Below are positions 8,618-62,010 of a stretch of 64,000 nucleotides of DNA, piece after piece. Both the position numbers and the translations under genes were made by a program. The notes beneath the pieces were generated by a model, which was not told the DNA's origin, ran no database searches, and saw only the letters and a list, made by a program, of their open reading frames with translations. Source of the stretch: Astropecten irregularis (taxonomy: Eukaryota > Echinodermata > Asteroidea > Paxillosida > Astropectinidae); assembly GCA_963971285.1 (NCBI GenBank), contig OZ020260.1:5304798-5368797 (forward strand), in the 5' to 3' direction. Every line of letters begins with the position of its first letter. Position 1 is the stretch's first letter.

Positions 8618-8742
8618 GTCTCCTGATGAGGACTATAGTAGGCTAGTCGAAATGTTGAGACCTTAATTGCGAGAAGTGCGAACGAAATAGAAGCGCGAAA
8701 GTACGAGCGATTCTTACATGGTGTTTCCGCAAACCGATCCAC
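8618..8742 (+). mobile_element. Hammerhead-core short element, copy 1
   Basis: CTGATGAG at 8623-8630 is followed by the stem GACTA (8631-8635) / TAGTC (8644-8648) and GAAA (8649-8652), the order found in hammerhead ribozyme cores. A conserved tail follows, ending 'gtgtttccgcaaaccgatcc' and 'ac'. The copy at 26143-26262 aligns end to end. Hammerhead activity is an inference; no full three-stem fold was verified. Confidence 0.6.
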
Positions 8743-10758: not shown

Positions 10759-10945
10759 AGTGATCCTTGGGATATGCATGGTTTCATGGCTTCTGACTGC
10801 CAAACTAAGAAATATTAGGGACACCGCCAACGTAGGGCTGGGTAGCTCAGGTGGTGGAGCGCCTGTATGGTATTCAGGAGGTCGCCGGTTTGAATCCCGC
10901 TCCAGTCAATTTTTCTTTGTTCAGTTTTCAATGACTTAAATTCAA
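10759..10945 (+). repeat. tRNA-derived SINE, family 1, copy 1
   Basis: The tRNA-like core 10835-10908 has A-box 'tagctcaggtggtggagc' (10843-10860) and B-box 'ggtttgaatcc' (10887-10897). A 6-bp acceptor-like stem pairs GGGCTGG with CCAGTC. The anticodon arm has a 9-nt loop, so this is not a normal tRNA. The flanking head ('gatccttgggatat') and tail ('ttcaatgactta') recur at 53286-53482 and in minus-strand copies at 25150, 27661, 28304 and 39505. Confidence 0.75.
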
Positions 10946-16817: not shown

Positions 16818-16965
16818 CACCTCCTGAAGACAACCCCAAACCCTAACCCTCCTGAAGACGAACAGAGAATACTGTTCAGAACGTCGAGAGATAAAACCAT
16901 CAGTTCTTCTCAGAACCACACACTCTCACAGAAGAGATTACATGGTGTCACCGCAAACCTACCTT
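16818..16965 (+). mobile_element. Hammerhead-core short element, copy 3, degraded
   Basis: The phrase 'cctcctgaagac' occurs twice (from about 16820 and from about 16848). The second is followed by the 6-bp stem GAACAG (16860-16865) / CTGTTC (16872-16877) and AGAACGTC in place of GAAACGTC. The tail 'ttacatggtgtcaccgcaaa' matches the tails at 8728 and 26240. Confidence 0.5.
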
Positions 16966-17859
16966 ATTTCATTTCATCACCTATACTATAAAGCTACTGG
17001 CTGTCTAGATCCAAAAAGAAAAACTTCAGCGAAAAAACAACAAATTTGCCCAAGCCTAAGTGTTTTCAAGAAAGCCGAAACATTTTTGAATTTGCTTTAT
17101 TTTTTTCTTCTTCTCCTCAGTCCATTATAAAAAAAATGGAAAAAAAAAATTAAGATAAGAGTTCTTTCTTCTGTGGCCTCGACAAAAAATCCGTAGACCT
17201 AAAGTGATTTTGCCGAAATTATTATTATTATTATTATTTTTTTTTCATCTGGGGAGGTTTTGTGCACACTGTACTATAATATATGATACACTGAAGTAAT
17301 TACTAAGCCTCTAGTGCACTTCCTGCAAATTGTTTACATGTGAATGCATTCTGAACCCAGCTGTGCAGTGTTATGACAAGACTTGCGCTTCAATTCATCC
17401 CGTGCTTATATACGGAAAAAATCATACTTAATGAATATTTTTTTTAGCATCTAGCTCGTCGGCTATATAAAACTTTCTGTCGTTATGATTAAATTATTGA
17501 AATTTAATGGAAAAGCAAAACCGAAGACCAAAATTTATGATTTTGATTTATTAAAAAAAAGCACATGGGATCATACTTATCATTTAATTTAGTATTGTAT
17601 CAGTGAATGTTATTTCGAATAATCAATATTTGATATTACACTCTTATAATCATCAATATCATGTAACCGATTCTTTATCAATGGAAGTAATAGTTGTATT
17701 CAAATTGAAATTATATTCATTTAATAGAAATGAATTTATATATTCATTCCATTGATGAAAATCAATTGTCTATATTGCATTAATGAAATGATAATGGTAT
17801 TACCCTTAGAAGACAAATCAATGATTGCATTGGATGAGTAAAATCATTGATCATAGATA
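16966..17859. other. AT-rich non-coding stretch
   Basis: Poly-A/T runs, an ATT microsatellite at about 17218, and many scattered ATCAAT/ATTGAT motifs that merge into the array downstream. No gene is supported. Confidence 0.45.
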
Positions 17860-25870: not shown

Positions 25871-26354
25871 TACAGTGGAATGCCACAAACACTGCTATAG
25901 AGGTTATTCACAGACGTCATAAAATCACATGATTGGCTGTCAAGCTTTTTCTATGTTGTCCATGGTTACACGTAGGATACTGTACGTTGCGTATGCACTG
26001 AAGCATATTGTTTCGCGCGTGCAGTCATTGTGCTTGATGGCAAATGAAATTATGTGAATACCTTCTATACCGAACATTTTGCTACACCGAACATCATCCT
26101 TGGCTCCCAATTTTTTACGTGCTATGTATAGGAATGCTGAACGTCTAATGATGAGGACTAGAATAAGCTAGTCAAAACGTGAGACTTTACAAAAAGTGTT
26201 AACAAAATAGAAGTGCGAAAGTACGAACGATTCTTACATGGTGTTTCCGCAAACCGATCCACAATGCTGAACAGTGTGCACTGTAACGAACGACCACTAT
26301 AACAAACCATTTCGGTGCATCCCGGCATGTTTGTTATAGTGGCGTTCCACTGTA
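25871..26354. mobile_element. Tc1/mariner-pogo-like MITE with nested element
   Basis: Termini 'tacagtggaatgccac' and 'gtggcgttccactgta'. Shares 'catcatccttggctcccaat' and 'gtgcatcccggcatgtttgt' with copies at 2832 and 30125. The hammerhead-core element at 26143-26262 inserted into it. Confidence 0.7.
26133..26272 (+). mobile_element. Hammerhead-core short element, complete, with 10-bp target duplication
   Basis: AATGCTGAAC occurs at 26133-26142 and again at 26263-26272, bounding a 120-bp insert. The insert begins 'gtctaatgatgag', continues with stem GACTA (26156-26160) / TAGTC (26169-26173) and CAAAACGT (mutated GAAAC), and ends 'gtgtttccgcaaaccgatcc' 'ac'. Target duplications of this length fit target-primed retrotransposition. 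No coding capacity, so it must be non-autonomous or a 5'-truncated tail of a longer element such as a Penelope-like element (inference). Confidence 0.75.
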
Positions 26355-27660: not shown

Positions 27661-27795
27661 TTGAAAAGTGAACAAAGAAAAATTTACTGGAGCGGGATTC
27701 GAACCAGTGACCTCCTGAAAACCGTATAGGCGCTCTGCCAACTGAGCTATCCAGCCCTACGTTGGTGGTGTCCCTGAATAGTCAATTATCGTTGC
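27661..27795 (-). repeat. tRNA-derived SINE, family 1, well-preserved minus copy
   Basis: Complement of the family 1 core: 'ggagcgggattcgaaccagt' (B-box) and 'ctgccaactgagctatccag' (A-box), with the tail 'attgaaaagtgaacaaag' on the left. Confidence 0.75.
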
Positions 27796-31674: not shown

Positions 31675-31690
31675 CTGGAAGAATAACTTT

Positions 31691-31780
31691 CTCCTGAAGA
31701 CGGCCAGAGTATACTGACCGAAACGTCAAGTTAACCAGCTCTTTTCAGAGCCACCCCATTCTCACAAAAGAGATATATAT
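31691..31780 (+). mobile_element. Hammerhead-core short element, copy 4
   Basis: CTGAAGA at 31694-31700, stem GGCCA...TGACC with one mismatch, then GAAACGTCAA. The following 'ccattctcacaaaagagat' matches the 'ctctcacagaagagat' of copy 3. Lacks the final 'ccgcaaacc' tail. Confidence 0.5.
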
Positions 31781-31814
31781 ATGTCACATGCAAATTATAC
31801 TATCCTGGAACAAT

Positions 31815-31912
31815 TTGAGACTTTTGAGAACCGGTCTTCGAGTCAACAGGGCACGCAATTGTGAGCATGCACGCGCGCTTTTGACTTGAAGACCGGTTCT
31901 CAAAAGTCTCCC
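31815..31912. mobile_element. K foldback, copy 2
   Basis: Arms 'gagacttttgagaaccggtc' and 'gaccggttctcaaaagtctc' are perfectly complementary. The loop is 'cacgcaattgtgagcatgca' 'cgcgcg'. Confidence 0.8.
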
Positions 31913-53285: not shown

Positions 53286-53482
53286 AATGATCCTTGGGAT
53301 ATAGCGGTATGTGAGTGGTTTCATGGCTTTGGACTGACAAATGAAACTAAAGATATTTGACATCACCAACATAGGGCTGGATAGCTCAGTTGGTAGAGCA
53401 CCAGTATGGTTTTCCAGAGGTCACTGGTTCGAATCCCGCTCCAGTCAATATGTTCATCTTTGTTCACCTTTCATTGACTTTC
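53286..53482 (+). repeat. tRNA-derived SINE, family 1, best-preserved plus copy
   Basis: tRNA-like part 53374-53447: A-box 'tagctcagttggtagagc', B-box 'ggttcgaatcc' (53426-53436), CCAGTC 3' stem. Head 'gatccttgggatatag' and 'ggtttcatggctttggactg'; tail 'tttgttcacctttcattgac'. Confidence 0.75.
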
Positions 53483-53778: not shown

Positions 53779-53910
53779 AGCCTTCGATAAAGATCCTGCT
53801 AGGATCGAAACATGTCAGGCCCTCCTAACGCCAAGCATTTGATATATTTCAGGTCATTATTTTGGCTGACGAGTAGTTTGCAGCAGTTTATTAATACCTG
53901 TATTGCAATT
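53779..53910 (+). repeat. Family X, best-preserved copy
   Basis: 'gccttcgataaagatcctgc' 'taggatcgaaacatgtcagg' 'ccctcctaacgccaagcatt', then 'ttcaggtcattattttggct' 'ga' and 'agtttgcagcagtttattaa'. Perfect GATCC/GGATC stem directly before GAAAC. Confidence 0.7.
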
Positions 53911-61389: not shown

Positions 61390-62010
61390 ACAGTTGGAGA
61401 CGTAGAAAAAACAAAATCACAATACGGTACAGTCATATTTGTGTATTCCTTCTTATTGGTGACGAATAAGATCACCATAATGCACATCTATACAGTAAAG
61501 AGACTTCAAAAGGTTGCCGTACTTCCTGCAAAAGCAAAATCGAGTCGTGTCCTGATCACTTTTAGACAGTTGATGACGTAGGGAAAATAAAATCACAGAA
61601 GTCATAATTGTGTATTCCTGGTCATTAGTGAGGAATAAGATCACCATAATGCACATCTATACAGTAAAGAGACTTCAAAAGGTTGCCGTACTTCCTGCAA
61701 GAGCAAAATCGAGTCATGTCCTGATTACCTTTGGACAGTTGGAGACGTAGGGAAAATAAAATCACAGAAGTCATAATTGTGTATTCCTGGTCATTAGTGA
61801 CGAATATTAAGATCACCGTAATACACATCTACAGTAAAAAGACATTACAAAGTTGCTGTACTTCCTGCAAGAGCAACATTGAGTCGTGTCCTGATTACCT
61901 TTAGACAGTTGATGACGTAGGGAAAATAAAATCACAGAAGTCATAATTGTGTATTCCTGGTCATTAGTGACGAACAAGATCACTGTGATACACTTCTCAA
62001 GCAAAGAGCG
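61390..62010. repeat. Tandem array, about 169-bp unit, roughly four copies
   Basis: 'gtattcc' anchors lie at 61443, 61612, 61781 and 61951 (spacing 169, 169, 170). The unit contains 'gggaaaataaaatcacagaa', 'aagatcaccataatgcacat' and 'gttgccgtacttcctgcaa'. The last unit is partial. Minus-strand frames across it are open because of the repeat. Confidence 0.9.

What the first reader, a model, noticed from the sequence alone, without database searches (positions are those of the whole stretch)
26133..26272. A 120-bp element starting with a hammerhead-like core and bounded by a perfect 10-bp target duplication
AATGCTGAAC is repeated on both sides of a 120-bp insert inside a pogo-like MITE. The insert opens with (G)TCTAATGATGAG, a GACTA/TAGTC stem and an A-rich GAAA-like segment, then a conserved tail ending CCGCAAACCGATCCAC. 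The duplication proves mobility as a discrete unit and its length fits retrotransposition. Hammerhead motifs are known in Penelope-like elements and in small non-autonomous retroelements, so this could be a very short ribozyme-bearing retroelement.
Basis: partly seen in the sequence, partly recalled or inferred. Interest (0 to 1): 0.72.

Follow-up and report, generated by a model that had tools for sequence, protein, structure and literature searches.

The report
Ribozyme-bearing stub of a Penelope retroelement
The 120-base insert is a real transposed piece with a hammerhead-ribozyme remnant at its start, but it is the end segment of a larger Penelope-like retroelement present in the same genome rather than a new independent miniature element.

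Summary
26143-26262 is a 120-bp insert with a perfect 10-bp duplication; a related MITE copy shows the uninterrupted site with one target copy. A second window copy (8618-8742) keeps an intact minimal type-I hammerhead core; the reported copy has C3A and G12A and is probably dead. In 68 distinct copies examined (chosen as best matches), 37 end 3' at CCGATCCAC and 31 continue into one 36-nt tail; 57 show no upstream extension, 37 of them starting at the hammerhead's first base. Target-duplication-like repeats occur in 26 of 68 (4.8 expected), head-to-head inverted neighbours in 22 of 68. Longer copies carry Penelope-type frames directly upstream (RVT_1 called in L106, GIY-YIG in L103 and L104), ending inside the ribozyme as SPDED-stop. 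So the unit is the end segment of a Penelope-like element. Best mechanism: reverse transcription starts internally at one of two tail sites and runs to the RNA 5' end, 30 nt downstream of a TATA box, a strong-stop-like product. The Penelope origin is well supported; the 5'-end mechanism is inferred.

The parts
26133..26142 (+). left copy of the 10-bp target-site duplication (AATGCTGAAC)
26143..26262 (+). E1: 120-bp terminal unit of a Penelope-like element, hammerhead remnant at 5' end, short 3' end CCGATCCAC
26143..26185 (+). degenerate minimal type-I hammerhead (C3A, G12A, 1-nt deletion near the cleavage triplet); stem II GACTAG/CTAGTC intact
   Evidence: sequence; alignment with E2
26263..26272 (+). 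right copy of the target-site duplication
25871..26354 (.). host MITE-like repeat (16-nt terminal inverted repeats, 94% complementary) that received the insert
   Evidence: uninterrupted relative in L102
8618..8742 (+). E2: 125-bp copy of the same unit with intact hammerhead core; flanked by TAGAAtCAAGTT / TAGAAcCAAGTT
16823..16969 (+). E4: probably the end unit of a related subfamily (hammerhead CTGAAGA.., AGAACGTCGAG, tail TTACATGGTGTCACCGCAAACC), flanks CATTTCgTCACCT / CATTTCaTCACCT; link to E1/E2 rests on a weak tail match (nhmmer E 0.028) and the shared architecture
   Evidence: assignment inferred
31685..31803 (+). E3: probably a third such unit (hammerhead CTGAAGA..GAAACGTC plus histone-like stem-loop), flanks CCTGGAAgAAT / CCTGGAAcAAT; nhmmer match to E1/E2 not significant (E 0.42)
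   Evidence: assignment inferred
53780..53894 (+). terminal-repeat fragment of a different Penelope-like family, seen beside GIY-YIG frames in fetched loci
   Evidence: boundaries by eye

Best explanation
The 120-bp insert is a retrotransposed terminal (pLTR-end) segment of a Penelope-like element (PLE) that encodes reverse transcriptase and GIY-YIG endonuclease. The PLE RNA begins at the first base of a minimal type-I hammerhead. The PLE enzyme nicks DNA and starts copying not at the RNA 3' end but internally, at one of two sites 125 or about 161 nt from that RNA start, and copies to the RNA 5' end. The result is a 120-161 bp 'strong-stop' insert with a short target duplication, sometimes with a second, head-to-head copy made from the other DNA strand. 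Shown: shared ends, two 3' ends, target repeats, inverted neighbours, and PLE frames joined to the unit. Inferred: that the 5' end is the transcription start and that the copying run ends there. The hammerhead would cleave, if at all, as a dimer at GUU^GAGAC, 39 nt into the unit; unit 5' ends do not lie at that site, so cleavage does not define the insert. In the reported copy the ribozyme is probably dead.
For: E2 query: 40 of 1832 first-look candidates scored, 48 matches; E1 query: 40 of 635, 42 matches. Of 68 distinct copies, 31 carry the same 36-nt tail and 37 stop at CCAC, with no intermediate scores; target repeats in 26 of 68 against 4.8 expected by re-pairing flanks (score >=10: 14 against 0.57), the right copy lying at -2 to +4 nt after the short end or 34-39 nt after it in 21 of 26. 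57 of 68 show no upstream extension (control: 1 of 68 scores as extended by chance), 37 of these 57 start at base 1; 22 of 68 have an inverted neighbour. In L047, L043 and L018 TATAAG begins 30 nt before base 1 (counted by eye). Parent: in L102-L106 a frame runs into the unit and ends as SPDED-stop; Pfam RVT_1 4e-11 in L106, GIY-YIG 25.6 bits in L104 and 23.8 in L103, cut-off 22.6. An Anolis PLE starts reverse transcription 111-118 nt from the stem II start, with the ribozyme cut at +26 (PMC11167929); in E2 the short end is +113 and the cut +27 (counted on the sequence). Over E1-E4, 79.5% of stem cells pair, reached by 4 of 500 shuffles.
Against: No copy with the 5' repeat of this family followed by the N-terminal frame was seen; the last searches for longer copies did not complete, so the RNA 5' end rests on a TATA box and coincident ends. 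11 of 68 copies extend upstream to graded lengths, and a query from the upstream region found 40 scored copies of 580 candidates, so longer copies are not rare. Copies were chosen as best matches to the full unit, which under-represents internally truncated ones. 42 of 68 show no target repeat by my rule, and about 5 of the 26 are expected by chance. RT and EN were called by Pfam in different copies, not both in one. In one search one of five measures is ordinary (pair types, 119 of 500), and E1 is a close relative of E2. No RNA data.
Confidence: 0.68

Rival explanations
1. A genuinely non-autonomous miniature retroelement (SINE- or retrozyme-like) with its own source loci, mobilised in trans by PLE enzymes that recognise the shared tail.
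For: In the examined set the unit is more often without than with upstream sequence (57 against 11 of 68); the tandem trimer L063 (period about 130) could give dimers; PLE machinery is reported to mobilise unrelated sequence between terminal repeats (PMC3846280, passages).
Against: Most examined units lack the upstream TATA region, so they would need an outside promoter; Rfam and ARAGORN show no tRNA-type match in the unit. PLE copies bearing the same unit exist.
Confidence: 0.17
2. Ordinary 5'-truncated PLE copies, with the RT falling off or jumping template near the folded hammerhead rather than reaching an RNA end.
For: Graded upstream extensions in 11 of 68 copies; 40 upstream-bearing copies scored; graded N-terminal truncation of the frame among 150 scored matches.
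Against: 37 of 57 non-extended copies start at exactly the same base; an RT that has already copied the hammerhead has no hammerhead structure left ahead of it at that base (inference).
Confidence: 0.13
3. A retrozyme-type circular RNA intermediate: tandem units cleaved by the hammerhead, circularised, then copied once around.
For: The helix III bases ACGU are kept position by position in 62-68 of 68 copies (A35 68, C36 62, G37 66, U38 67), allowing dimeric cleavage; tandem units in L063.
Against: Inserts begin at stem I, not at the cleavage site; single units prevail in the examined set; ribozyme mutants of the Anolis PLE still insert (PMC11167929).
Confidence: 0.04

Closest known systems
Penelope-like elements with GIY-YIG endonuclease (Poseidon of Anolis, PMC11167929, main text and passages; Adineta Penelope families, PMC3846280, passages)
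   Same: RT and GIY-YIG frames, minimal hammerhead in the terminal repeat (Anolis), optional 30-40 bp tail, 8-10 bp target duplications (Adineta), head-to-head inverted terminal repeats, partial tandems, TATA box in the repeat
   Different: Here many end pieces are solo 120-161 bp inserts starting at one base, 26 of 68 with target repeats; several Adineta solo pLTRs were reported without them. The reading frame ends inside the ribozyme core (SPDED-stop), whereas in the Anolis element the frame begins at stem II
Small dimeric hammerhead variants of PLEs (Cervera and de la Pena 2014, not held; Lunse, Weinberg and Breaker 2017; both recalled, not read)
   Same: Type I, helix III reduced to a few bases
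   Different: One extra nucleotide (position 13) between the core and stem II in the four window units, by my pairing; whether that is usual was not checked
Animal non-LTR retrozymes (PMC7229834, abstract, passages and Discussion)
   Same: Short non-coding retro-copies with type-I hammerheads
   Different: Retrozymes are tandem repeats giving RNAs of about 170-400 nt and circles; these are mostly single copies with minimal hammerheads tied to a PLE frame

Membership tests
Penelope-like element (terminal segment of) | Reverse transcriptase and GIY-YIG endonuclease frames joined to the same terminal unit | tested here: met
   L106 RVT_1 43.4 bits (cut-off 29.6); L104 and L103 GIY-YIG 25.6 and 23.8 bits (cut-off 22.6); unit directly follows in each. 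The L106 piece scanned shows the VYRIPCSCGKVYIGETG motif by eye but GIY-YIG was not called in it
Penelope-like element (terminal segment of) | Optional 30-40 bp tail at the 3' end | tested here: met
   36-nt tail in 31 of 68 copies, absent in 37
Penelope-like element (terminal segment of) | Short target-site duplications | tested here: met
   26 of 68 against 4.8 expected; E1 exact 10 bp
Penelope-like element (terminal segment of) | Head-to-head inverted terminal repeats | tested here: met
   inverted neighbour in 22 of 68, within 63 bp of the 5' end in 21
Penelope-like element (terminal segment of) | Same terminal repeat on both sides of the reading frame | tested here: inconclusive
   3' side seen for this family; 5' side not found, searches unanswered. 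For another PLE family the repeat lies before a frame in L101 and after GIY-YIG in 15 loci
Minimal type-I hammerhead ribozyme | Core CUGANGA .. GAA, stems I and II, NUH cleavage triplet | tested here: met
   E2 and the majority sequence of 68 copies; C3 kept in 59, G12 in 49 of 68. E1 itself fails at C3 and G12; Rfam does not call even E2
Minimal type-I hammerhead ribozyme | Self-cleavage | not testable with these tools
   needs in vitro transcription of monomer and dimer
Animal retrozyme | Tandem repeats bounded by hammerheads | tested here: not met
   In 68 copies with 0.6-1.5 kb flanks, one same-strand full trimer (L063); further same-strand pieces in L065 and L079 and second tails in L016, L017, L038; the rest single or inverted
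SINE | Internal RNA polymerase III promoter | tested here: inconclusive
   No tRNA-type match in the unit by Rfam or ARAGORN; A/B boxes not scanned

The most novel reading that the evidence does not exclude
Penelope-like elements generate a distinct class of self-limited genomic inserts, a cellular analogue of retroviral strong-stop DNA: internal initiation at the 5'-proximal tail and copying to the RNA start produces precise 125- or 161-bp ribozyme-bearing copies that seed the genome with dimer-capable hammerheads; and in this family one stretch of DNA serves as protein C-terminus (SPDED-stop), ribozyme core and RNA 5' end.
Probability: 0.5. Interest if true: 0.6.

Novelty: new variant of a known kind. 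Interest (0 to 1): 0.45.

Why it matters
One review (PMC7761336, passages) says many animal genomes hold thousands of minimal hammerheads, most of them dispersed in non-coding DNA, and that their role in Penelope elements is unknown. Here such motifs are explained as terminal products of Penelope reverse transcription with predictable ends, and the overlap of protein end, ribozyme core and likely RNA start gives a concrete, testable reason why the motif stays conserved.

Tried and rejected
Viral contigs were scanned for the tail (nothing) and for a PLE-type hammerhead (three hits L001-L003; their surroundings look like phage coding sequence, taken as chance). Prokaryote genomes gave nothing for one strict pattern. 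Rfam does not call the unit. Folding of the 120-nt strand is unremarkable (z -0.66 and +0.97). A permissive hammerhead scan gave 8 window hits over both strands; 20 mononucleotide shuffles, scanned on one strand only, gave 0-4 each (mean 1.7), so only E2 is taken from it. The PLE family found first (L085-L101) has a different hammerhead-like motif and is not the parent. Pfam on five long window frames found nothing. E3 and E4 were not searched genome-wide. The species was not identified.

Counts: the 70 rows were E2, L012-L050 and L051-L080; 2 rows (L041, L042) were dropped as duplicates of L040. An earlier count (58 rows) used a cruder de-duplication and is superseded. Of the 40 scored E1 candidates only the 30 returned as loci were used; all 40 of E2 were (one is E2 itself). 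L004-L011 were not counted again. A start 'at base 1' means that bases 1-5 match; a point change at base 1 counts as a later start.

Full report
Observation. The 120-bp insert and its perfect 10-bp duplication are exactly where reported, inside a MITE-like repeat with 16-nt inverted ends. A related repeat in L102 aligns across the joined flanks (115 columns, 82%) without insert and with one target copy, so this is an insertion.

Other copies in the window. E2 (8618-8742) aligns with E1 over its whole length (nhmmer model of the two) and has its own flanking repeat with one mismatch. E2 holds the intact pattern CTGATGAG..CGAAA, once in the window against 0.05 expected. E1 has C3 changed to A and G12 to A. 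E4 (16823-16969) and E3 (31685-31803) look like related units with CTGAAGA-type hammerheads and flanking repeats with one mismatch; the sequence match to E1/E2 is weak (E 0.028 and 0.42), so their assignment is inferred from architecture. In random pairs of positions a repeat as good arises in 15 of 600 (E1/E2), 21 of 600 (E4) and 68 of 600 (E3), so weight rests on the set of copies.

Ribozyme. In the majority sequence stem I is GUCUC/GAGAC, the core CUGAUGA, stem II GACUAG/CUAGUC with one extra base before it, then GAAA-CGUU and the cleavage point before GAGAC. Helix III is reduced to ACGU, which could pair only between two molecules or two tandem copies; dimeric cleavage has been suggested for minimal PLE hammerheads (PMC7761336, passages). 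Over E1-E4 79.5% of stem cells pair, with double-sided changes at 4 of 11 pairs; 4 of 500 shuffles reach the paired percentage, 11 of 500 the number of such pairs, but 119 of 500 the number of pair types (four sequences only, E1 and E2 closely related, E1 out of register in stem I). Of 68 copies 59 keep C3 and 49 keep G12, with A there in 18; that change would fit CpG decay (inference). Rfam reports nothing for E2.

Genome. The window lies in a 475.7-Mb genome of 168 contigs; the species was not identified. For E2, 40 of 1832 first-look candidates were scored, most covering the whole unit; for E1, 40 of 635. These are not copy numbers. In the 68 distinct copies read, the 3' end is one of two: CCGATCCAC (37) or the same plus 36 nt (31). 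Repeats fitting a target duplication were found in 26 of 68 (re-paired flanks give 4.8); in 21 of the 26 the right copy lies -2 to +4 nt from the first end or 34-39 nt after it. At the 5' side 11 of 68 continue into shared upstream sequence for 10 to 62 nt or more (control 1 of 68); of the other 57, 37 start at base 1, 19 at bases 2-8 and one could not be placed. 22 of 68 have an inverted copy upstream, and L063 is a tandem of three.

Parent. A query from the upstream region of L047 gave 40 scored matches of 580 candidates with the promoter part and the hammerhead start, so upstream-bearing copies are not rare. In L102, L103, L104, L105 and L106 a reading frame runs up to the unit and ends in the hammerhead as ..SPDED-stop (TCT CCT GAT GAG GAC TAG in the majority form). 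The frames of L103, L105 and L106 are interrupted further upstream. L106 encodes a reverse transcriptase with YVDD (RVT_1, E 4e-11), and L104 and L103 a GIY-YIG domain; no single copy was called for both. A search with the C-terminal part gave 150 scored matches of 488 candidates, the closest ones with graded N-terminal truncation and the weaker ones from other families. Within unit plus tail a frame opens as MVFPQTDPHTNCHHAKPQIF, reminiscent of Adineta, where the repeat holds the first 12 codons and 22 with the tail (PMC3846280, passages); whether it is the PLE's real start is not shown.

Mechanism. In the Anolis PLE (PMC11167929, main text section and passages) reverse transcription starts internally at an AC-rich stem-loop 111-118 nt from the stem II start, the ribozyme cut is at +26, both DNA strands are cut and extended, the optional tail is the stretch between two start sites, the ribozyme cleaves only with protein present, and ribozyme mutants still insert. 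Counted the same way E2 has its cut at +27 and its short end at +113. TATAAG begins 30 nt before base 1 of the unit in L047, L043 and L018, where a Pol II start is expected (general knowledge). An RNA that starts at base 1 and is copied from either internal site would give the observed 125- and 161-bp inserts, and extension of both strands could give the head-to-head neighbours. The PLE origin I regard as well supported; the strong-stop step is inferred, since no RNA ends and no copy with the 5' repeat were seen.

Known or new. Minimal hammerheads, tails, inverted repeats and short duplications are all known for PLEs. What I did not find in the papers seen is a set of solo end-pieces with one preferred 5' base, target repeats and an explanation by internal initiation. 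A search with five terms including Penelope-like and strong-stop showed no paper holding both among the 8 listed of 78; the other 70 were not seen. The library lacks most subscription papers, and the two key hammerhead papers (2014, 2017) were not read, so priority is not claimed.

Noticed in passing
31732-31778: E3 contains a histone-3'-UTR-like stem-loop (Rfam RF00032, 32.3 bits against cut-off 34, E 1.5e-7) right after its hammerhead; E4 has a similar hairpin by eye (GTTCTTCTCAGAAC). Why a PLE end should carry a histone-type hairpin is unexplained.
   Followed up: partly
L103:2578-3096, L102, L104, L105, L106: The PLE reading frame ends inside the hammerhead, so SPDED-stop and the ribozyme core share bases.
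   Followed up: partly
16820-16852: E4 begins with a partial hammerhead start, then ACCCCAAACCCTAACC, resembling its own tail end, joined to a second hammerhead start: a possible tail-to-head tandem junction (by eye; 10-nt match with one mismatch).
   Followed up: no
31817-31910: 39-nt inverted repeat with a 16-nt spacer (90% complementary), a small hairpin or MITE just downstream of E3.
   Followed up: no
L086:821-883: An E3-like hammerhead and hairpin (63 nt, 89%) lies within a larger inverted repeat beside a PLE of another family (inverted repeat by eye).
   Followed up: no
10836-10908, 53375-53447, 27684-27756: tRNA-like matches (Rfam), possibly tRNA genes or tRNA-derived repeats.
   Followed up: no
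61390-62008: Tandem repeat with a period of about 170 bp (self-match).
   Followed up: no
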